Source: Croceibacterium selenioxidans (lineage in GTDB: Bacteria; Pseudomonadota; Alphaproteobacteria; Sphingomonadales; Sphingomonadaceae). From it: a DNA stretch of 64,000 nt. A program made the translations under genes and the position numbers. Location of the stretch: contig NZ_JAHFVK010000003.1 of assembly GCF_018599195.1 (NCBI RefSeq), positions 90,564 to 154,563 of the forward strand, read 5' to 3'. A model generated the notes under the pieces. It made no database searches, had not been told where the DNA came from, and saw only the letters and a program-made list of their open reading frames with translations. Numbering within the stretch: the stretch's first letter is position 1; every line of letters starts with the position of its first letter. Of this stretch, positions 21,542-29,339 are shown in pieces.

Positions 21542-22972
21542 TCAGACCAGTTCGCGCACGTCCGTCAGCTTGCCGGTCACTGCCGCAGCGGCCGCCATCG
21601 CAGGGCTTACCAAGTGCGTCCTCGCGCCCGGGCCCTGACGACCGACGAAGTTGCGGTTGCTGGTCGAAGCGCAGCGCTCCCCCGGGGGAACCTTGTCCGG
21701 GTTCATGCCGAGGCAGGCCGAGCAGCCCGGTTCTCTCCATTCGAGGCCGGCTCCAATGAAGACCTTGTCGAGCCCTTCGGCTTCGGCCTGTTCCTTCACC
21801 AATCCTGAGCCCGGGACGACAATGGCCCACTTGACGTTTGACGCCTTGTGACGGCCCTTGAGCACCGCTGCGGCGGCGCGCAAGTCCTCGATCCGGCTGT
21901 TGGTGCAGCTGCCGATGAAGACGTTCTGAACTTCGACCTCGTCCATCCGCTGACCGGGCGCGAGGCCCATGTAATCGAGGCTGGCCTGGGCGGCCTTCTG
22001 CTTGGACGGATCGGCAAAGCTCGATGGATCGGGAACGACGCCACCGATTGCGACGGTGTCTTCAGGGCTGGTGCCCCAGGTCACGGTCGGCTCGATGTCG
22101 GCGGCGTTGATGACCACCGACTTGTCGAAAACTGCGCCTTCGTCGGTCTTGAGCGTGCGCCAATAGGCGACCGCCTGATCCCACTCCGCGCCCTTGGGCG
22201 AGAAGGGGCGGCCCTTGAGATACGCAAACGTGGTGTCGTCGGGCGCGATCAGCCCGGCGCGAGCGCCGCCTTCGATGCTCATGTTGCAGACCGTCAGGCG
22301 GCCTTCGACGCTCATCTCCTCGAACACCTTGCCACGGTATTCAATCACGTAGCCGGTGCCGCCGGCCGTGCCGATTACGCCGATGATGTGGAGAATCAAG
22401 TCCTTCGAGGTGATGCCCGGACCCAGGTCACCTTCGACACGCACTTCCATCGTCCTGGACTGCTTGAGCAGCAGGGTCTGGGTGGCGAGCACATGCTCAA
22501 CCTCGCTCGTGCCAATTCCGAACGCCAGCGCACCGACGCCGCCATGCGCCGCCGTGTGACTGTCGCCGCACACGATCGTAGTGCCCGGGAGGGAGAAGCC
22601 CTGCTCCGGCCCGACGACGTGGACGATGCCTTGCTCCCGCGCTGTCGCGCCGAAGTAGCGTACGCCGAATTCGGGTGCGTTGTGTTCCAGCGCTTCGAGC
22701 TGCTGAGCGCTTTCCAGATCGGCGATCGGTATCCGCTTGCCGGCGGCGTCGAGGCGCGCGGTGGTCGGCAGGTTATGGTCGGGCACGGCGAGCGTGAGTT
22801 CGGGCCGGCGGACTTTGCGCCCGTTCAGCCGCAGCGCTTCGAACGCCTGCGGGCTGGTGACTTCGTGGACCAGGTGCCGGTCGATGAAGATCAGCGAGGT
22901 GCCATCGTCGCGCCGTTCGATCACGTGCGCGTCCCAGATCTTTTCGTAGAGGGTGCGAGGTTTGGAGGCCAT
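21542..22972 (-). CDS. leuC: 3-isopropylmalate dehydratase large subunit
   Basis: 476 residues, normal LeuC length. It starts [20 protein letters not shown], and the [4Fe-4S] ligands are seen in [16 protein letters not shown] (near residue 350) and [13 protein letters not shown] (near 412-415). The substrate loop [20 protein letters not shown] is present. With LeuD it converts 2-isopropylmalate to 3-isopropylmalate. A 157-base gap without a clear gene separates its stop from the glycosylase gene. crtZ is divergent, with its ATG 77 bases from the leuC ATG. Confidence 0.96.
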
Positions 22973-23048
22973 GCCCCGCAGTTACGCACGACGGCGCGCA
23001 ATTCAAGCGGGGCTGTCTTTGATCGGCCAAAGTTCCTATTTAGACGGC

Positions 23049-23567
23049 ATGGATTGGTTGACTCCTCTCGCCGTCGTAATGGCCACCATCGCGCTGATGG
23101 AATGGGTCGCGTGGGCAAGCCACAAATATGTGATGCACGGCTTCGCCTGGGCCTGGCACCGCGACCATCACGAGCCGCACGGCAACATTCTCGAGAAGAA
23201 CGACCGCTTCGCCCTGGTGGGCGCGGCGATGAGCATTTCGATGTTTGCGCTCGGCAGCCCAATGATCCTGGGGGCGCGCGCCTGGTGGCCCGGGACGTGG
23301 ATCGGGTTGGGGATACTCGGCTATGGGATCATCTACACGCTGGTGCACGACGGTCTCGTCCACCAGCGCTGGTTCCGTTACGTGCCACGGCGCGGCTATC
23401 TCAAGCGGCTGGTGCAGGCGCATAAGCTCCACCATGCGACGGTCGGCAAGGAGGGCGGGGTGAGTTTCGGCTTCGTCTGGGCACGCGATCCGGTGCGGTT
23501 GAAGGCTGAACTCAAGCGCCAGCGCGAGGCGGGCGTGATTCAGGTGCAAGAAGCAACGGAGCTCTAA
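23049..23567 (+). CDS. crtZ: Beta-carotene hydroxylase
   Basis: 172 residues from ATG 23049 (an upstream in-frame start would overlap leuC). The four His motifs of the fatty-acid-hydroxylase superfamily are present: HKYVMHG, HRDHHEPHG, VHDGLVHQRW and HKLHHA. Four membrane helices are predicted. CrtZ uses oxygen and iron at the inner membrane to hydroxylate the beta rings of beta-carotene towards zeaxanthin. No other crt gene is in the window. The stop overlaps the sufE stop by four bases (CTAA). Confidence 0.93.
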   Translation: MDWLTPLAVVMATIALMEWVAWASHKYVMHGFAWAWHRDHHEPHGNILEKNDRFALVGAAMSISMFALGSPMILGARAWWPGTWIGLGILGYGIIYTLVHDGLVHQRWFRYVPRRGYLKRLVQAHKLHHATVGKEGGVSFGFVWARDPVRLKAELKRQREAGVIQVQEATEL

Positions 23568-23971
23568 CCCGCCGCGATCCGAGCGGCGTGCTGCTTCACC
23601 AGAGCGATCATGTTCGGCACGCCTTGGGTACGGTTGGAGCTGAGCTGGTTCCGCAGGTCGAATGGTTCGAGCGCCGCCGTGATGTCCATTGCCGCGACCT
23701 CAGCGGCCGGCTTGTCCTGCACAGCCGAGATCACCAACGCCACGATCCCCTTGGTGATCGCGGCGTTGCTGTCGGCGAGGAAGTGGAGCTTGCCGTCCTG
23801 CTCGGTCGGATAGACCCAGACGCTGGCCGAGCAGCCCCTTACCGTAGTCGCGTCGGTCTTGAGCGGCTGGGGCATTTCGTCGAGCTCGCGGCCCAGTTCG
23901 ATCAGCAGCCGGTATCGTTCGTCGGCGTCGAGAAATTCGTACTCTTCGAGAATGTCGGCTAGGGAGCGCAT
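23564..23971 (-). CDS. sufE: SufE family cysteine desulfuration protein
   Basis: 135 residues. The active-site Cys47 lies in TTVRGCSASVWV, the sulfur-accepting loop of SufE, preceded by the helical LLIELGRELDEMPQPLK block. SufE takes sulfur from the desulfurase SufS and passes it to the SUF Fe-S scaffold in the cytoplasm. No suf genes are nearby. The gene follows the long psp-like run by only 24 bases on the same strand, so it may be its last member; an internal promoter cannot be excluded. Confidence 0.93.
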   Translation of the reverse strand: MRSLADILEEYEFLDADERYRLLIELGRELDEMPQPLKTDATTVRGCSASVWVYPTEQDGKLHFLADSNAAITKGIVALVISAVQDKPAAEVAAMDITAALEPFDLRNQLSSNRTQGVPNMIALVKQHAARIAAG

Positions 23972-23995
23972 GACGCGCCCCCTAGCGCATATTGC

Positions 23996-24232
23996 TTACA
24001 GGTCCACCCCACTGGCGATGGCTTCCAGCTTGCGGATGCGTTCCTTGAGGTCGGCGATCTCGATCCGTGCGGCGCCTTCGCGGGCGCCGCCTTCGATCTC
24101 GCGCTTGCCGTGCCCTGTTTCAAGCTCACGGGACTTAAGCTCCAGCCAATCCTGCCAGCCCTTGAGCAAGGTGATGGCCACGACCAGCAGACCCGAGAGG
24201 GCAGTGGCGGCGATCAACAGTTCCTGACTCAT
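23996..24232 (-). CDS. PspB-like small membrane/coiled-coil protein (paralogue 8)
   Basis: 78 residues. One membrane helix at residues 5-25 (LLIAATALSGLLVVAITLLK) is followed by a Glu/Arg-rich coiled coil that ends IADLKERIRKLEAIASGVDL. The RIRKLEAI end aligns with the RVxVLERI motif of its neighbours and with the C-terminal RIQALESI of enterobacterial PspB, but the VTDxG segment is degenerate and the protein stops there. It is the most divergent member of the tandem series, 26 bases downstream of the previous one. Topology expected: helix in the inner membrane with the coiled coil in the cytoplasm. Confidence 0.7.
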   Translation of the reverse strand: MSQELLIAATALSGLLVVAITLLKGWQDWLELKSRELETGHGKREIEGGAREGAARIEIADLKERIRKLEAIASGVDL

Positions 24233-24258
24233 CTCGAGTTCTCCCCTGCCTCTCGCGC

Positions 24259-24516
24259 CTATTTCTCGCGGAGGCTGTCTATTTCAGCCGAAAGCCGTTT
24301 CGTCTCGCGGTCCTCGGTGGCGATCCGTTCGAGAACCTTTACTCGCTCGCGCAGTTCGAGAACCTCGCGCTTGAGCTCTGCATCTTCGCGCGGCAGCGGT
24401 TTCTCGTTGCCCATGGCGTCGGTCGTAATGCCGTGCCGGGCGCGGTGCCTCGTCTTGATGACCTCGGCGAAAGCTAGGATCGCAACGATTACAATAATGG
24501 CGGTCCACATGTTCAT
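24259..24516 (-). CDS. PspB-like small membrane/coiled-coil protein (paralogue 7)
   Basis: 85 residues. Membrane helix at about 3-21 (MWTAIIVIVAILAFAEVI), a short basic stretch KTRHRARHG, then a long coiled coil with LRERVKVLERIATEDRE, the shared signature. The C-terminus RLSAEIDSLREK keeps the IxxLR ending. The start overlaps the preceding stop in ATGA, so it is translationally coupled to paralogue 6. The helix-plus-coil plan and the location in the operon suggest an inner-membrane protein that pairs with PspA, PspB, PspC or a sibling; direct function unknown. Confidence 0.72.
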   Translation of the reverse strand: MNMWTAIIVIVAILAFAEVIKTRHRARHGITTDAMGNEKPLPREDAELKREVLELRERVKVLERIATEDRETKRLSAEIDSLREK

Positions 24517-24851
24517 TGCACATTCCCCTTGTCCGACCGCAGGCTCTCGATCTCATGGCCGAGGCGGTAGCCGCTGTCGGTGACGATGCGTTCGACGTTG
24601 ATCAGGCGATCCTGCAGCGAGCCGATCTCGGCCCGTAGCTGGGCGTTCTCCTGCGTAAGAAGCTTCACGCGCTCCATCGCCTCGGTGGTCACCGCCGGTT
24701 TCAGCGATTGGCCCCACATACCTTCCAGCGGATAGCCGTGCTTGATCTTCAGGCGGGTGTTGTGGACCGAGGCGAGAATTCCCGCGGCTCCGAGCAACAG
24801 GCCGCCCCCGACTACCCAGGGAAGGTACTGAAGAAGATCCATCGGATTCAT
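24513..24851 (-). CDS. PspB-like small membrane/coiled-coil protein (paralogue 6)
   Basis: 112 residues, the longest of the series. Membrane helix around 8-30 (YLPWVVGGGLLLGAAGILAS), a Gly/Pro-containing linker with HGYPLEGMWGQSLKP, then the coiled coil MERVKLLTQENAQLRAEIGS and the signature NVERIVTDSGYRLGHEIESLR. The VERIVTDSGY core is very close to the VLERIVTDKGY of paralogues 1-4. The start codon overlaps the preceding stop (TGATG), so it is coupled. An in-frame ATG three codons later would be an alternative start. Confidence 0.75.
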   Translation of the reverse strand: MNPMDLLQYLPWVVGGGLLLGAAGILASVHNTRLKIKHGYPLEGMWGQSLKPAVTTEAMERVKLLTQENAQLRAEIGSLQDRLINVERIVTDSGYRLGHEIESLRSDKGNVQ

Positions 24852-25153
24852 CAGGCGCGCTCCTCTGCCTTGAATTGGACTGTCTCGACGGGCGTACCGC
24901 GCAAGTCCTCGATGCTCTGGGCGAGGTCGGCGCCCTTATCCGTGGCGATGCGCTCCAGCACGCGGACGCGGGCTTCGAGCCGCTCGACATGGGCTGCGTA
25001 TTGCGCGGCCTTCTCGGCCGTGCTGTCAGCGGTCACGCCGACCTGCCGTTCCTTGAAGGCCATGAAGCGCTTGAACGCCTCGCCTAGGGTTATGATCACG
25101 GCGAGCACGATGCCGCCCAGGACCACAGCCGCAATGGTTTCACCCGGTCCCAT
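24851..25153 (-). CDS. PspB-like small membrane/coiled-coil protein (paralogue 5)
   Basis: 100 residues. Membrane helix at about 6-24 (TIAAVVLGGIVLAVIITLG), a basic juxtamembrane segment (FKRFMAFKERQ), then a segment STAEKAAQYAAHVERLEARV shared almost exactly with paralogue 4 (TAEKAAQYAAS) and the signature RVLERIATDKGADLAQSIED followed by LRG. The shared AEKAAQYAA block shows 4 and 5 are close relatives. Two bases separate it from paralogue 4. The product is expected to lie in the inner membrane with its coil in the cytoplasm. Confidence 0.75.
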   Translation of the reverse strand: MGPGETIAAVVLGGIVLAVIITLGEAFKRFMAFKERQVGVTADSTAEKAAQYAAHVERLEARVRVLERIATDKGADLAQSIEDLRGTPVETVQFKAEERA

Positions 25154-25155
25154 CG

Positions 25156-25446
25156 TCAGTTGCTCCTCTCGACTTCGTGGCCTTCGAACCGATCCTCGAC
25201 CCGGCGCTGATCGCGCAGGGCCTCGATCTGCAGGGCCACGTCGTAACCCTTGTCGGTGACGATGCGTTCGAGCACTGCCACTCGGTCTTCCAGGGCCTTG
25301 TTGCTGGCGGCGTACTGCGCGGCCTTTTCCGCGGTCGCCTGGATCTGCAGCTTCATCATGTCCTTGCGGTGGCCCAGCCAGATGGCGAAGCCCGGAATGA
25401 AGCCCAGGACCATCGCGATGGCGAAGATCGGGATGATGATTTCCAT
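25156..25446 (-). CDS. PspB-like small membrane/coiled-coil protein (paralogue 4)
   Basis: 96 residues from ATG 25446, chosen because AAGGAGAG lies eight bases upstream; the frame stays open further but the extra part is Arg/Pro-rich and reads like non-coding. Membrane helix about 2-24 (EIIIPIFAIAMVLGFIPGFA), a basic GHRKDMMKLQ segment, then TAEKAAQYAAS and the full signature DRVAVLERIVTDKGYDVA followed by QIEALRDQR. The QIEALRD ending is shared with paralogues 1-3. The last ~15 residues (EDRFEGHEVERSN) are unique. Function is inferred only from operon position and PspB likeness. Confidence 0.8.
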   Translation of the reverse strand: MEIIIPIFAIAMVLGFIPGFAIWLGHRKDMMKLQIQATAEKAAQYAASNKALEDRVAVLERIVTDKGYDVALQIEALRDQRRVEDRFEGHEVERSN

Positions 25447-25474
25447 CTCGAAGTCTCTCCTTGCTTCGCGGCGC

Positions 25475-25789
25475 TCAGCCGAGGTCCGCGGACCTGGCCG
25501 CGGGTCGGGCCTCACGTGCTGCCAAGGCATCGTCGATGCCGCGCTGGTCGCGGAGCGCTTCGATCTGCGCGGCTATGTTCAGGCCACGATCGGTCACGAT
25601 CCGCTCCAGGACAGCGACGCGATCCTCGAGCATCTCCATGCGCCCGTCTTGCTTATCGGTGTTGGACGAAGCGTAACGGGCACCGGCTTCGATGCGCATC
25701 CGCTCCACCCGTTCCCGATGCTTCGAGATGATGGCGACGATCGGGATCGACAGCGCGAAAATCGGGATCATGAACGGAAAGAAATCCAT
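25475..25789 (-). CDS. PspB-like small membrane/coiled-coil protein (paralogue 3)
   Basis: 104 residues. Membrane helix about 4-22 (FPFMIPIFALSIPIVAIIS), a basic segment KHRERVERMRIEAG, a short variable spacer, then MLEDRVAVLERIVTDRGLNI followed by AAQIEALRDQRG. The coiled-coil block DRVAVLERIVTD is identical to that of paralogue 4. The C-terminal tail DDALAAREARPAARSADLG is unique. 32 bases separate it from paralogue 2. An inner-membrane, cytoplasm-facing protein is expected. Confidence 0.8.
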   Translation of the reverse strand: MDFFPFMIPIFALSIPIVAIISKHRERVERMRIEAGARYASSNTDKQDGRMEMLEDRVAVLERIVTDRGLNIAAQIEALRDQRGIDDALAAREARPAARSADLG

Positions 25790-25821
25790 CGACGTGCTTC
25801 CTTGAGTCTGTGCCCGGGTGC

Positions 25822-26100
25822 TTATCCGACCCGGACGCTGTCCCTGTCTTCGAGCTGGCTGTTCATCGGGCGCTGGTCACGCAGCGCTTCGATCTGGTGG
25901 GCGACGTCGTAACCCTTATCGGTGACGATCCGCTCCAGAATGCGAGTGCGCTCCTCCAACTCCTGATAGGCTGTGCTGGCGGCGGTCCGGCCCTGCAGTT
26001 CCACCAACTTGCGACGATGCTGTGTCCAGATCGCGAAGATCGGAACCGACATCAGCGCTATGGGAAGCGTCACTGCGAAGATGATGTTTGCCAGGTCCAT
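25822..26100 (-). CDS. PspB-like small membrane/coiled-coil protein (paralogue 2)
   Basis: 92 residues. Membrane helix about 5-24 (NIIFAVTLPIALMSVPIFAI), basic HRRKLVELQ, then a coiled coil with QELEERTRILERIVTDKGYD and VAHQIEALRDQRP. The last block is identical over HQIEALRD to paralogue 1. The tail NSQLEDRDSVRVG differs from all others. Eleven bases follow paralogue 1. The combination of a variable helix with a nearly constant coil is the repeating theme of this cluster. Confidence 0.8.
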   Translation of the reverse strand: MDLANIIFAVTLPIALMSVPIFAIWTQHRRKLVELQGRTAASTAYQELEERTRILERIVTDKGYDVAHQIEALRDQRPMNSQLEDRDSVRVG

Positions 26101-26111
26101 GACCGTTCCTC

Positions 26112-26423
26112 TCAGCGCTGCCGTTCCGCTTGGCGGCCCATTTCGAGCGGGACGCCCGTGTCAGGTCGCACATCGCGCAGGGCCTCGATCTGGTGGGCGA
26201 CGTCGAAGCCGCGATCGGTCACGATCCGCTCAAGCACGCGCATGCGGTCTTCGAGCTCTTCGATCCGAGCCGCCTGGGCATCGTCGGCCTTGTGCGTGCG
26301 AGCCTGAAGTTCGAACTTGGCCATCTTCTGCTTGTGGCCGATCCACACGCCGTAGAAGGCCAGTGGAATTCCCATGCCGATCGCCAGGATCGGTATGAAG
26401 ACGCCAATGATTGCCGGATCCAT
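26112..26423 (-). CDS. PspB-like small membrane/coiled-coil protein (paralogue 1)
   Basis: 103 residues, first of the eight after pspC (23-base gap). Membrane helix about 5-28 (IIGVFIPILAIGMGIPLAFY), then WIGHKQKMAKFELQART, a charged stretch, and the signature EDRMRVLERIVTDRGFDVAH followed by QIEALRDVR. Residues after this (DTGVPLEMGRQAERQR) are unique. The helix followed by a W-x-GHKxKM-K motif also resembles paralogue 4 (WLGHRKDMMK) and PspB itself (HYITKWK). It is the best-preserved example of the pattern in the series. Confidence 0.8.
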   Translation of the reverse strand: MDPAIIGVFIPILAIGMGIPLAFYGVWIGHKQKMAKFELQARTHKADDAQAARIEELEDRMRVLERIVTDRGFDVAHQIEALRDVRPDTGVPLEMGRQAERQR

Positions 26424-26446
26424 CCCCTGTCCCCTCTGATAATGCC

Positions 26447-26824
26447 TTAGCGAAGCCGCTCGATCTCGGCCGAGAGGCGCGGGTTGCTGGTTACGTAGTA
26501 GGACTCGACCTCAGCCAGCCGGCGGTCGATGTCGCGGAACTGCGAGCGGATTTCCCTCGCCGTACGCTTTGGTGACTGGCGGACACGCTGCCAGTACTTC
26601 TGTTCGTCCTGATCGACGTAGAGGTTGGCGGGTTTCTTCGACGCCAGGAGCCCCAGCGCGAAGTAGATCGGAATGCCAATGCCGCCCGTCGAGACAGTGA
26701 GGATGATGAAGGCCAGACGCCACCAGATCGCATTGATGCCGGTGTAATCCTCCAGCCCCGCGCACACGCCCATGAGCTTGGCGTTCTGCTTGTCGCGGTA
26801 AAGCGTCGTGCGAGGCGTGTTCAC
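26447..26824 (-). CDS. pspC: Phage-shock protein PspC
   Basis: 125 residues. The PspC domain covers about 6-65: LYRDKQNAKLMGVCAGLEDY, then WWRLAFIILTVSTGGIGIPI and YFALGLLASKKP. A charged C-terminal coil follows (RQSPKRTAREIRSQFRDIDR, with RLAEVESYYVTSNPRLSAEI). The start overlaps the pspB stop in ATGA. In enterobacteria PspB and PspC at the inner membrane relay stress to PspA. The C-terminal RLAEVESYYVTSNP segment echoes the RLVASDNPEF of PspB, so the two may pair through it. Full length and intact. Confidence 0.93.
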   Translation of the reverse strand: MNTPRTTLYRDKQNAKLMGVCAGLEDYTGINAIWWRLAFIILTVSTGGIGIPIYFALGLLASKKPANLYVDQDEQKYWQRVRQSPKRTAREIRSQFRDIDRRLAEVESYYVTSNPRLSAEIERLR

Positions 26825-27120
26825 TTCTTGGCTCCCTTCTTTTCGGCCAACAGGCGGTCGAGTTCACGCAGCGGTTCATTGTCGATCTCGCGATCGGGCA
26901 AGAGGCGCGCCGGCTTGAACTCTGGGTTGTCGGACGCGACCAGGCGTTCGACCGTGTCCATTCGTTCGTCCAGGCGCTTGGCCAGGTTGTAGAGTTCGTC
27001 GAGCAGGTGCTCGTCGTCGGTGGTTATCGTTGCAGCCGTTTTCCACTTGGTGATGTAGTGCATGATCACCCACGGAAGGCCGATGAAGATGGCCGGAACG
27101 ATGAAGACTTCGGAACCCAT
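26821..27120 (-). CDS. pspB: Phage-shock protein PspB
   Basis: 99 residues; enterobacterial PspB is about 74, so this has a C-terminal extension. Membrane helix about 3-24 (SEVFIVPAIFIGLPWVIMHY), the ITKWK turn, then a coiled coil (DDEHLLDELYNLAKRLDERM followed by DTVERLVASDNPEF) that aligns with PspB's RMRERIQALESILDAEHPNW. The extra tail EPLRELDRLLAEKKGAKK is Lys-rich. It is separated from pspA by three bases and overlaps pspC. It acts with PspC at the inner membrane. Each of the eight genes downstream follows the same plan. Confidence 0.9.
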   Translation of the reverse strand: MGSEVFIVPAIFIGLPWVIMHYITKWKTAATITTDDEHLLDELYNLAKRLDERMDTVERLVASDNPEFKPARLLPDREIDNEPLRELDRLLAEKKGAKK

Positions 27121-27123
27121 CGC

Positions 27124-27993
27124 TCAGCTCTCCTTCTTCTCGGAGCCGCCCATGCCGAGGGCCCGCTTCATCTCTTCGAGTTCCTCGTCGATCTTGTCGG
27201 CCCCTTCGAGCGCTGCAATCTCGTCCGAGAGGCTCGGCTTGCCGGTGCCGTCGGAGATGCTCAGGGCATCCGCGCGGCCTTCGGCATAGTCTACCCGGCG
27301 CTCGAGCTGGTCGAAGCGCGTCAGGGCATCGTCGACCCGCTCGTTGGTCATCAGACTGCGGAGCTTCACGCGGTTCTCCGCGCTTTCCAGGCGAGCGGCG
27401 ATCTGCGTCTGCCGGCTGCGAGCTTCGCGCAGGCGATTCTGCAGCTTGGCGATGTCTTGCTCGTAAGCCCGCAGGGCGTCATCGAGCACGGCGATCTCCT
27501 GCTTGAGCTGGTCGCCCATATCCGCGGCGCGCTTCTTCTCGACCAGCGCAGCGCGGGCCAGGTCTTCTCGATCCTTCGACAGCGCGAGCTGGGCCTTCTC
27601 GCCCCAATCTGCCTGAAGCTTCTCCAGCTTGACGGTGTGGCGGTGCATTTCCTTCTGATCCGCAATCGTCCGCGCCGCGCTGGCGCGGACCTCGACAAGC
27701 GTTTCCTCCATCTCGAGGATGATCATGCGGATCATCTTCGAAGGATCGTCGGCTTGATCGAGCAGCTCGTTGAAGTTGGCGGCGATGATGTCTCGAGTGC
27801 GGGAAAAAATGCCCATCCAGGGTACTCCGGATACGAATGAATTGACGGCAGCGTTGAAATCCTGAGCGGCCGGTTTGCCCATGCCCGGCTGGGGGCTGGT
27901 GCGAAGCCGCTCTATTTCGCGATCGATGCGGGAAGTGGCGCGCGCGGCCGCCTCTCCGATCGGACGTAGAGGGTTTGGGTCCTTGGGGTTCAT
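27124..27993 (-). CDS. pspA: Phage-shock protein PspA with N-terminal extension
   Basis: 289 residues against about 222 in enterobacteria. The classic PspA start MGIFSRTRDIIAANFNELLD is at residue 60; it is followed by DPSKMIRMIILEMEETLVEV and long coiled-coil helices. I kept the ATG at 27993 because it overlaps the stop of the small peptide gene upstream (ATGA) and the 59 added residues (NPLRPIGEAAARATSRIDRE…) look like protein; a start at 27816 has GGAG nearby and cannot be excluded. PspA binds membranes under envelope stress and, when free, inhibits PspF. Confidence 0.9.
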   Translation of the reverse strand: MNPKDPNPLRPIGEAAARATSRIDREIERLRTSPQPGMGKPAAQDFNAAVNSFVSGVPWMGIFSRTRDIIAANFNELLDQADDPSKMIRMIILEMEETLVEVRASAARTIADQKEMHRHTVKLEKLQADWGEKAQLALSKDREDLARAALVEKKRAADMGDQLKQEIAVLDDALRAYEQDIAKLQNRLREARSRQTQIAARLESAENRVKLRSLMTNERVDDALTRFDQLERRVDYAEGRADALSISDGTGKPSLSDEIAALEGADKIDEELEEMKRALGMGGSEKKES

Positions 27994-28145
27994 GCCAACT
28001 CGACCAGCGGCGCGTCGACCGGGTTGGCGTCGGCGGCCAGGCAGATTTGCTGGTTCAGCGCGAAGGCGTTGAACGAGATCATGGCGATGATGCTCGCCAG
28101 CGCGGCGATGCCTAGCTTGCTGCTGAAGAACTCCCGGTCAAACAT
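27990..28145 (-). CDS. Small membrane peptide heading the psp operon
   Basis: 51 residues starting MFDREFFSSKLGIAALASII and having one hydrophobic helix (about 11-31), then an acidic C-terminus with one Cys. It is first after the sigma54 promoter; predicted leader is about 28 bases. Its stop overlaps the start of the pspA frame in ATGA, so translation is likely coupled. The 44-aa peptide at 7421 stands in the same place before another Psp gene and has a similar Ala-rich helix (AALSALAIS against AALASIIAM). No named family known to me. Confidence 0.65.
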   Translation of the reverse strand: MFDREFFSSKLGIAALASIIAMISFNAFALNQQICLAADANPVDAPLVELA

Positions 28146-28183
28146 GGTCTTCAATCCCCTGACCAAACCTATGCCAGTATATC

Positions 28184-28199
28184 AGCAAGGAGCATGCCA
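28184..28199 (-). promoter_or_regulatory. Sigma54 promoter of the psp operon
   Basis: On the minus strand the sequence reads TGGCATG-CTCC-TTGCT, matching the sigma54 consensus TGGCACG-N4-TTGCW with a single pyrimidine substitution and the exact 10-base GG-GC spacing. Predicted transcription start is near 28173, 28 bases before the first start codon. It is located between divergent pspF and the psp operon, as in enterobacteria, so PspF is the expected activator. Confidence 0.85.
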
Positions 28200-28254
28200 A
28201 ATGAGGAAAATGCGCCGCCTTGCTCGAATTTTGGGATATATCTTAGCAGGCTAT

Positions 28255-28280
28255 GTGGCGCATATTGCCACCTTGTGGCA
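28255..28280. promoter_or_regulatory. Candidate PspF upstream activating sequence
   Basis: GTGGC (28255-28259), GCCAC (28267-28271) and GTGGC (28275-28279) form an inverted repeat with 7-base spacing plus one more repeat of the half-site. They lie about 82-107 bases upstream of the predicted psp transcription start, the usual distance for a sigma54 enhancer, and just before the pspF start codon, where binding could also repress pspF. Confidence 0.45.
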
Positions 28281-28301
28281 TTTTTTGCTATCTCTTGGCT
28301 A

Positions 28302-29339
28302 ATGGAGCGGGAAAATCAGTTCATTGGCCAATCGGGCGCTTTTCTCGACGCCGTGGAGCGGGCGAGCCGGGCTGCGCCCATGCGTCGCCCGGTGCTCGTT
28401 ATCGGGGAGCGCGGAACTGGCAAAGAACTGATCGCCGAACGCCTTCACCGCCTGTCGAACCGTTGGGAAGAACCGCTCGTCACGATGAACTGCGCAGCGC
28501 TGCCCGAGACGTTGATCGAGGCTGAGCTGTTTGGCCACGAAGCGGGCTCGTTCACCGGCGCAACGCGCGCCAGGGCGGGACGCTTCGAAGAAGCCGACCG
28601 GGGGACGCTGTTTCTCGACGAGTTGGCGACGCTATCGATGGGGGCGCAAGAGCGATTGCTCCGGGCCGTCGAGTACGGCGAGGTGACCCGCATCGGCTCG
28701 TCGCGTCCGATCCGCGTCGACGTGCGCATCGTGGCGGCTACCAACGAGAATCTGCCAAGGCTAGCAGACGAGGGGCGGTTTCGCGCCGACCTGCTCGACA
28801 GGCTGAGTTTCGAGGTGATCACGCTGCCGCCCTTGCGGGTACGAGAGGGTGATATCGACGTTCTCGCGGACTATTTCGGCCGCCGGATGGCCGCGGAAAT
28901 CGGTTGGGAGCGTTGGCCAGGCTTTGCAGATCATGTGCGGCGGCAGCTCGACGAGCATCCCTGGCCCGGGAATGTGCGAGAGTTGCGAAACGTGGTCGAG
29001 CGCGCCGTCTATCGCTGGGCCAATTGGGAGGAGTCGATCGGATACGTCCAGTTCGATCCCTTCGAGAGCCCCTGGAAGCCGCTGGGCGTTCCCGGCAGCA
29101 AGGGCGTGGAGTCCGTGCCGGCCGCCTACGCTTCACGCCCTTTGGCGCAGGACTACGATAGCGTTGAGGACCTGCGGACCGCTGTCGAAGCGCACGAGCG
29201 GGCCATTCTCGAACACCACCTCGGCCGGAATCGCTGGAACCAGCGACAGACGGCCAAGGCACTGGGGTTGACTTACGATCAGCTGCGCCACTGCATCCGC
29301 AAGCACGGGCTTGCGGAACGCAACGGGGAGGTGGACTAA
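28302..29339 (+). CDS. pspF: Sigma54-dependent activator PspF
   Basis: 345 residues, made only of an AAA+ domain and a C-terminal DNA-binding helix-turn-helix, with no N-terminal sensory domain, as in PspF. Walker A is GERGTGKE (35-42), the sigma54-contacting loop reads GSFTGA (82-87), Walker B is GTLFLDE (101-107). The C-terminal helix pair is NRWNQRQTAKALGLTYDQLR. The ATG at 28302 matches the usual opening (ENQFIGQSGAFLDAVERAS). It is divergent from the psp operon and its own promoter should lie within the shared 156-base space. Confidence 0.93.
   Translation: MERENQFIGQSGAFLDAVERASRAAPMRRPVLVIGERGTGKELIAERLHRLSNRWEEPLVTMNCAALPETLIEAELFGHEAGSFTGATRARAGRFEEADRGTLFLDELATLSMGAQERLLRAVEYGEVTRIGSSRPIRVDVRIVAATNENLPRLADEGRFRADLLDRLSFEVITLPPLRVREGDIDVLADYFGRRMAAEIGWERWPGFADHVRRQLDEHPWPGNVRELRNVVERAVYRWANWEESIGYVQFDPFESPWKPLGVPGSKGVESVPAAYASRPLAQDYDSVEDLRTAVEAHERAILEHHLGRNRWNQRQTAKALGLTYDQLRHCIRKHGLAERNGEVD

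What the first reader, a model, noticed from the sequence alone, without database searches (positions are those of the whole stretch)
23996..26423. Eight extra PspB-like genes in tandem behind pspABC
Downstream of pspA-pspB-pspC on the same strand lie eight small genes (78-112 residues). Each encodes one N-terminal membrane helix, a basic juxtamembrane stretch and a C-terminal coiled coil. They are spaced by -4 to 32 bases. All carry a version of the core (V/I)LERIVTDxG, which aligns with the PspB C-terminal coil (E. coli RIQALESILDAEHPNW). Classical psp operons contain one PspB. A run of nine PspB-type proteins under one promoter could form mixed oligomers around PspA or respond to different membrane insults. 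I know of no description of such an array.
Basis: partly seen in the sequence, partly recalled or inferred. Interest (0 to 1): 0.82.

Follow-up and report, generated by a model that had tools for sequence, protein, structure and literature searches.

The report
Ordered array of phage-shock membrane anchors
Right behind the pspABC membrane-stress genes this bacterium carries eight small related genes, and relatives across its family keep similar sets in a preferred order; they likely encode membrane anchors that would help hold the repair protein PspA on a damaged membrane, an extra layer of a textbook stress response.

Summary
In detail: eight small minus-strand genes (g1-g8, 23996-26423) follow pspABC, spaced -4 to 32 bases; seven have a counterpart in L031 with dN/dS 0.05-0.19. 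The label "extra PspB" is half right. None passes a PspB model. Profile-profile comparison finds PspB over the full length, but PspC's C-terminal half equally well, and a tree leaves the array outside both PspB (99) and PspC (99). The motif LERI-V-TD aligns with PspC's ERY-V-TS, whose valine is reported to matter for binding PspA.

The set is not local: 211 of 213 listed own-family genomes match. In 75 of 80 named loci the genes lie between pspC and sufE, as types A to D, A usually first and D usually last. Sigma-54 sites lie before pspA and almost never inside. Presence follows PspA: 30 of 30 PspA-positive against 1 of 13 PspA-negative relatives. Unlinked copies in sister families occur only with PspA (35 of 35, against 15 of 23 genomes without one; weak once relatedness is considered).

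Best reading: a third family of Psp membrane proteins, predicted PspA-docking anchors. Docking is untested. Ravi et al. 2024 mention "PspB duplicates" in one clause.

The parts
26112..26423 (-). g1, array type A, 103 aa
   Evidence: dN/dS 0.19 against L031
25822..26100 (-). g2, array type A, 92 aa, no orthologue in L031
25475..25789 (-). g3, array type A, 104 aa
25156..25446 (-). g4, array type A, 96 aa; reciprocal best of a gene in 63 of 75 loci, nearly always the first array gene there
24851..25153 (-). g5, scored as type A by profile but outside the type A clade of the tree; nearest to the second A-like gene that sits late in relatives' arrays, 100 aa
24513..24851 (-). g6, array type B with conserved KHGYPLEGMWGQ stretch after the helix, 112 aa
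   Evidence: clade support 100
24259..24516 (-). g7, array type C, LERIATE tail, 85 aa
23996..24232 (-). g8, array type D (type D is the last array gene in 69 of 75 loci); short tail, 78 aa
   Evidence: clade support 100
26821..27120 (-). pspB proper (PF06667 E 4.6e-19)
26447..26824 (-). pspC (TIGR02978 E 2.1e-34); its C-tail is the best match to the array profile in this genome outside the eight
27124..27993 (-). pspA
   Evidence: one PF04012 match in this genome
27990..28145 (-). 51-aa membrane-type small ORF overlapping the pspA start; similar frames in relatives
28185..28199 (-). sigma-54 -24/-12 type site TGGCATGCTCCTTGC
28266..28280 (.). inverted repeat TGCCAC-N3-GTGGCA, candidate PspF-binding site (untested)
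28302..29339 (+). pspF, divergent (start at 28302 is inferred; the open frame begins at 28194; name from position and its AAA+/Fis-type sequence, no model scan run)
23564..23971 (-). sufE-like gene that bounds the array downstream in relatives too (name recalled, no model scan run)

Best explanation
The eight genes form an ordered set inside the phage-shock (psp) gene cluster, and each protein is predicted to cross the inner membrane once and likely uses its cytoplasmic tail, which aligns with the PspA-binding tail of PspC, to hold PspA at the membrane under stress. Shown here: a family separate from PspB and PspC in the tree, kept as four types in a preferred order behind pspC, and present almost only where PspA is present. 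Inferred mechanism: when PspF and sigma-54 switch the operon on, the array is made together with PspA; the proteins insert with the N-terminus outside and the coiled tail inside; tails of types A and B offer PspC-type docking sites for PspA, while types C and D, whose coils look more like PspB, would pair with those tails or with PspC and set when they are open. The N-terminal halves differ sharply between types, so they probably sense or sit at different membrane states while feeding one common output. Extra type-A copies (four or five here) would add docking sites.
For: Position: array genes lie between pspC and sufE in 75 of 80 named loci (these are the best 80 matches to g1-g4, so near relatives); in 10 of 10 own-family genomes the matches lie under 1.5 kb from pspB. 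Spread: 211 of 213 listed own-family genomes match. Order: type A first in 68 of 75, type D last in 69 of 75, all four types in 56 of 75. One transcription unit: sigma-54 type site before pspA in 50 of 70 loci, 1 hit in 150,441 bases from pspC to sufE. Co-occurrence with PspA: array in 30 of 30 PspA-positive and 1 of 13 PspA-negative own-family genomes (the exception is 66% complete). Other families of the order: of 58 genomes, 35 of 35 with a copy away from psp have PspA, 15 of 23 without such a copy do. Tail: profile-profile of types A-C with PspC's C-terminal half 94.1-95.7%, with PspB 94.5-94.6%; in the own genome the next match after the eight is pspC's tail (E 0.014). PMC6003685 reports that a change at V125 of Yersinia PspC abolishes PspA binding and that the matching E. 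coli change, V105D, abolishes PspC-dependent signalling (passages); V105 aligns with the V of LERIVTD, V in 82 of 124 type A and 100 of 103 type B. Division of labour: head identity 0.11-0.14 between types, 0.19-0.47 within; tail 0.46-0.56 between types A-C, 0.63-0.75 within.
Against: No binding or expression data. At the key valine type C mostly has alanine (75 A, 10 V, 5 T of 90), type D always (73 of 73), and so do 37 of 124 type A; D lacks the second half of the tail. With 40-residue tail models the window's genes are split: g1, g2, g6 prefer PspC; g3, g4, g5, g7, g8 prefer PspB; over all, PspC wins in 103 of 124 A and 82 of 103 B, but in only 15 of 90 C and 14 of 73 D. Scores of single proteins are low: against non-sphingomonad PspB only 18% of type B and 4% of type D exceed all shuffles, against PspC only 9% of C and none of D, and reversed sequences reach 14.7 bits with one tail model. 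For single types some shuffled-column controls are high (up to 40.8% for type C against one PspB set). Co-loss with PspA inside the own family could be one deletion of a linked block. The test on unlinked copies leans on related genomes: without one family of four PspA-negative genomes p rises from 0.0003 to 0.012, and 15 PspA-positive genomes do without an unlinked copy.
Confidence: 0.48

Rival explanations
1. Diverged PspB copies: the eight act as alternative PspB subunits that pair with PspC and change the on/off switch.
For: Full-length profile match to PspB (94.6%); same one-helix layout and basic flank; types C and D score higher with PspB tails than PspC tails (75 of 90 and 59 of 73); PMC11237479 uses the words PspB duplicates; cytoplasmic parts of PspB and PspC interact (title of a reference seen).
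Against: 0 of 8 over PF06667 or TIGR02976 cut-offs; PxW/F ending behind the core in 1 of 390 against 65 of 79 own-family PspBs; outside the PspB clade, support 99; types A and B closer to PspC tails.
Confidence: 0.25
2. Copies of the back half of PspC that lost the PspC domain, so that the array began as PspC fragments.
For: PspC's C-terminal half aligns from its membrane segment to its end (94-96%); another alphaproteobacterial psp locus has exactly such a mini-PspC after pspC (L223, L224: IERYVTSPEFGLNRQFRDLE on one helix), and the tree puts that one inside PspC.
Against: The array itself lies outside the PspC clade (99); types C and D are closer to PspB.
Confidence: 0.12
3. Dosage or drift: tandem duplication in a strong stress operon made redundant copies with no separate roles.
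For: Copy number differs among relatives (2 to 9 per locus) and g2 has no counterpart in L031.
Against: Four types recur in a preferred order in 75 loci; type-specific heads are kept; dN/dS 0.05-0.19 in seven genes.
Confidence: 0.08
4. Passengers: small membrane proteins with a role unrelated to PspA that only use the psp promoter.
For: No array protein has a tested function; the unlinked copies sit near other genes, next to rpoD in L205 and L211; the link of unlinked copies to PspA is weak once one family is left out (p 0.012).
Against: Unlinked copies were found only with PspA (35 of 35 against 15 of 23), and array loss goes with PspA loss.
Confidence: 0.07

Closest known systems
PspB (PF06667, TIGR02976)
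   Same: Size, one N-terminal helix, basic flank, predicted cytoplasmic coil; full-length profile match; same operon
   Different: All eight below the family cut-offs; PspB's PxW/F ending almost absent; separate clade; two to nine per operon, in four types
PspC C-terminal half (TIGR02978 tail)
   Same: In types A and B the tail E-R-x-V-T-(D/S) followed by a stretch ending near I-E-x-L-R; the valine position is the one reported to matter for PspA binding
   Different: No PspC domain (PF04024); separate clade; types C and D depart from the motif
PspB duplicates noted by Ravi et al. 2024 (PMC11237479, e.g. AOL22920.1)
   Same: Probably the same phenomenon: extra PspB-like genes in a psp operon
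   Different: One clause in the passages I saw; no types, order, copy number, PspC-tail link or link to PspA presence there. I could not look up the accession or the supplements
Mini-PspC plus second PspB after pspC (L223, L224, two genomes of one unnamed alphaproteobacterial genus)
   Same: Single-helix extras behind pspC with a PspC-type and a PspB-type tail
   Different: Two genes only, and they fall inside PspC and PspB in the tree

Membership tests
PspB (PF06667 / TIGR02976) | Score above the curated cut-off | tested here: not met
   0 of 8; best g4 13.5 bits against 25.6 (PF06667), g5 17.7 against 51.7 (TIGR02976)
PspB (PF06667 / TIGR02976) | One N-terminal membrane helix, basic flank, cytoplasmic coil | tested here: met
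   Hydropathy and charge count: 8 of 8 one helix, flank basic in 7 of 8; coil and side judged from sequence only
PspB (PF06667 / TIGR02976) | C-terminal PxW/F ending behind the core | tested here: not met
   1 of 390 array proteins, 65 of 79 own-family PspBs, 15 of 21 other PspBs. A stricter pattern is in 0 of 390 arrays and 18 of 21 other PspBs, but also in 0 of 79 own-family PspBs, so it does not discriminate. Patterns were written after seeing sequences
PspB (PF06667 / TIGR02976) | Falls inside the PspB clade | tested here: not met
   PspB plus the L169 and L223 second copies 99; array outside (78 proteins, 80 columns)
PspB (PF06667 / TIGR02976) | Profile-profile homology | tested here: met
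   Types A-C together 94.6% full length; type D alone 28.7%, inconclusive
PspB (PF06667 / TIGR02976) | Binds PspC and silences the response | not testable with these tools
   -
PspC (PF04024 / TIGR02978) | PspC domain | tested here: not met
   No PF04024 match in any of the eight
PspC (PF04024 / TIGR02978) | PspA-binding C-tail motif | tested here: inconclusive
   By pattern in 216 of 227 types A and B, 42 of 90 C, 0 of 73 D, 15 of 19 PspCs, 0 of 21 PspBs; tail models split the window's own genes; binding itself untested
Psp system component | In the pspF-controlled sigma-54 operon | tested here: inconclusive
   Same strand, gaps -4 to 32, a sigma-54 type site before pspA and almost none inside; transcription not measured
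Psp system component | Presence follows PspA across genomes | tested here: met
   30 of 30 against 1 of 13; unlinked copies 35 of 35 against 15 of 23; relatedness not corrected

The most novel reading that the evidence does not exclude
Sphingomonads own a third class of Psp transmembrane protein, neither PspB nor PspC: a modular panel in which type-specific membrane heads read different kinds of damage and a shared PspC-type tail delivers PspA to the spot, so that one operon builds a tunable PspA-recruiting surface.
Probability: 0.35. Interest if true: 0.82.

Novelty: new variant of a known kind. Interest (0 to 1): 0.62.

Why it matters
The Psp response is a model for how bacteria sense and mend inner-membrane damage, and how a stress signal reaches PspA and brings it to the membrane is still open. 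Here a bacterial family has multiplied the candidate docking piece into an ordered set with separate membrane heads. If the reading is right, this is a natural experiment: delete types one by one and see which stresses still recruit PspA. It would also mean that annotations of these genes as hypothetical, or as PspB, miss a family-wide part of the stress response.

Tried and rejected
Direct PspB duplication: rejected as the simple origin because the tree keeps the array apart and most tails differ. An iterated array model may have drawn pspC into itself; its pspB and pspC scores were dropped and replaced by position-defined sets. A strict PspB-ending pattern proved useless because own-family PspBs lack it too; a looser one replaced it. 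The first count on unlinked copies (40 of 40 genomes with a match) was corrected: four of the 40 match only next to pspA, most likely pspB itself, and one (G057) has only a psp-linked copy. Solved-structure search gave generic coiled-coil and membrane-helix matches, best E 0.0038, not used. Pfam and NCBIfam side matches (bZIP, ZapB, LapA, HscB and others) are below their cut-offs and not used. Direct repeats in the DNA are the paralogues. A sigma-70 promoter scan found none in 22900-28400. The tree cannot say whether the array arose from an unlinked copy: array and unlinked relatives group together with support of only 54, and type C is only partly recovered.

Papers: PMC11237479, PMC9239133, PMC6003685, PMC5596341, PMC5443232 and PMC9241875 were seen as passages only; Flores-Kim and Darwin 2015 and 2016 only as entries in reference lists; PMC4416846 is not held. 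Searches behind the statement that no fuller description was found: (open-licence PMC papers only).
Full report
What is there. Behind pspA-pspB-pspC on the minus strand lie eight open frames of 78-112 residues at the stated coordinates. Gaps run from -4 to 32 bases, and each start has a purine-rich stretch upstream (by eye). Each protein has one hydrophobic helix near its N-terminus and no second one. Against L031, a locus of a Porphyrobacter sp. bin, seven genes have a one-to-one partner at 79-96% identity with dN/dS 0.05-0.19; g2 has none (best 50%). pspA, pspB, pspC and sufE give 0.03-0.09 in the same comparison. So these are real, selected genes, and the set differs by one from this relative.

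Spread and order. A profile of g1-g7 matches 273 of 296 genomes of the order at E 0.001: 211 of 213 listed own-family genomes, with 1-7 matches each, and 62 of other families with 1-3 (my counts from the listing, three unmatched genomes are not listed). Some weak matches in other families are pspB itself. Eighty named loci (Erythrobacter, Qipengyuania, Novosphingobium, Altererythrobacter and others; the best 80 of 424, so biased to near relatives) were read. In 75 of them array genes lie between pspC and sufE; the other five lack pspC or sufE in the stretch held. Two loci show an array-like frame before pspC and two after sufE. The 390 array proteins (382 from 75 loci plus the window's eight) were sorted into four types by iterated models: A 124, B 103, C 90, D 73. 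Type A comes first in 68 of 75 loci, D last in 69 of 75, all four occur in 56 of 75; strict A-B-C-D order holds in only 29, mostly because a second A-like gene sits later. The window reads AAAAABCD. In a tree, types B and D are clades with support 100, g1-g4 with nine of ten sampled type A proteins (and one C) 94; g5 is outside that clade and type C only partly recovered.

Is it PspB? None of the eight passes PF06667 or TIGR02976, while the operon's pspB does. Profile-profile comparison, with PspB and PspC sets cleaned of array members, gives for types A-C together 94.5-94.6% against PspB and 94.1-95.7% against PspC from its membrane segment to its end; 12 shuffled-column controls each reach at most 10.8% and 3.6%. 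For single types controls are noisier (up to 40.8% for type C against one PspB set). Against the non-sphingomonad sets type B leans to PspC (92.6 against 44.1%), type C to PspB (94.2 against 62.6%), type A matches both, type D is weak with both (28.7 and 7.5%) but is tied to the other types (73 of 73 above 721 scored shuffles). PspB and PspC themselves match only over 32-34 tail columns, at 25-54%. In a tree of 78 proteins and 80 columns PspB (with two second copies) and PspC halves (with one mini-PspC) each form a clade of support 99 and the array lies in neither; array and unlinked relatives group together with weak support, 54. In the own genome the best match to the array profile outside the eight is the tail of pspC (E 0.014). 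So the honest label is a third family related to both.

The tail. PMC6003685 (passages) says that PspC's C-terminus binds PspA on a stress signal and recruits it to the membrane, that a change at V125 of Yersinia PspC abolishes this interaction, and that the matching E. coli V105D abolishes PspC-dependent signalling. E. coli V105 is the V of ERYVTS and aligns with the V of LERIVTD. That position is V in 82 of 124 type A and 100 of 103 type B, but A in 75 of 90 type C and in all 73 type D. A PspC-type tail pattern is in 116 of 124 A, 100 of 103 B, 42 of 90 C, 0 of 73 D, 15 of 19 PspCs and 0 of 21 PspBs. A PxW/F ending behind the core is in 65 of 79 own-family PspBs, 15 of 21 others and 1 of 390 array proteins; a stricter ending pattern fails on own-family PspBs too (0 of 79) and is not used. 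All patterns were written after seeing the sequences. Equal-length tail models favour PspC in 103 of 124 A and 82 of 103 B, and PspB in 75 of 90 C and 59 of 73 D; of the window's genes g1, g2 and g6 prefer PspC, the other five PspB.

Regulation. A site of the sigma-54 type (TGGCATGCTCCTTGC) lies at 28185-28199, between pspF and pspA. The pattern TGGCA(C/T/G)-N5-TTGC is found before pspA in 50 of the 70 loci in which pspF, pspA, pspC and sufE were all found, and once in 150,441 bases of their pspC-sufE stretches. In the whole window the looser two-mismatch pattern is no more common than chance (63 against 61), so the evidence is the position, not the motif.

Tie to PspA. Of 199 own-family genomes 186 have PspA. 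I took all 13 without and 30 of the 186 with it: array matches are in 30 of 30 and 1 of 13; the exception is 66% complete (Fisher 8e-10, by genus 6e-7). Losing the operon in one piece would also do this. In other families of the order relatives of the array sit away from psp: 12 such loci were read, all on other contigs or at least 350 kb off. For the wider test I searched PspA in 58 genomes: 40 of the 62 matching ones and 18 of up to 21 non-matching ones, and then placed the matches of the 40. Thirty-five have a copy on another contig than pspA or more than 50 kb from it, one has only a psp-linked copy, four match only beside pspA. PspA is present in 35 of 35 with an unlinked copy and in 15 of 23 without (Fisher 0.0003; 0.012 without the one family that supplies four of the eight PspA-negative genomes). 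So this second test is supportive, not strong. After this correction I lowered the main confidence from 0.50 to 0.48 and raised the passenger rival from 0.05 to 0.07.

Origin. In the psp loci read from 11 genomes of families f2, f5, f6 and f7 there is pspABC without an array, one with a second PspB (L169); in f8 two of three have one type-C-like gene after pspC. Outside the order, two genomes of one alphaproteobacterial genus have a mini-PspC and a second PspB behind pspC (L223, L224). Across the class 14 of 289 genomes match, four of them own-family; of the rest only G369 is strong (E 1e-14), the others are weak, several of them PspB or unrelated coils.

What is known. [quoted passage not shown] PMC9239133 does not mention PspB arrays in the passages seen. 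Eight paper searches found no fuller account. Of the 120 relatives listed one has the UniRef name Phage shock protein B (P0114); the others are unnamed, hypothetical or carry unrelated names.

Verdict. A real, family-wide, ordered addition to the Psp operon. That it works with the Psp system is well supported by position and by presence; that it docks PspA is a prediction.

Noticed in passing
window 27990-28145 (-): A 51-aa membrane-type frame sits between the sigma-54 site and pspA and overlaps the pspA start; similar frames are hit in 46 of 81 sequences (80 loci plus window; place checked only for the few shown). It may be an unannotated first gene of the operon.
   Followed up: partly
L050 9118-9291 and similar places: A 58-aa glycine-rich membrane protein lies between the array and sufE in many relatives (hits in 38 of 80 loci, none in the window).
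   Followed up: partly
L223 1222-1710, L224: In two genomes of an unnamed alphaproteobacterial genus pspC is followed by a one-helix mini-PspC and a second PspB, a two-gene parallel to the array.
   Followed up: partly
L160 4436-4690, L164 4540-4776: In family f8 a short PspC domain without the tail follows pspC, before a type-C-like gene.
   Followed up: no
L205 4896-5168, L211 4712-4984: The unlinked relative lies 22-34 bases behind a large gene, shown to be rpoD-type in L205 and of matching size and similarity group in L211.
   Followed up: no
L169 6171-6395: A second PspB-type gene after pspC (ILDAEVPGW ending), inside the PspB clade.
   Followed up: partly
L038, L039, L076: About 1.4-1.5 kb with another frame lies between the array and sufE.
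   Followed up: no
window 22953-23567 (+): Looks like a carotenoid or fatty-acid hydroxylase (HRDHHEPH stretch; name recalled, no model scan).
   Followed up: no
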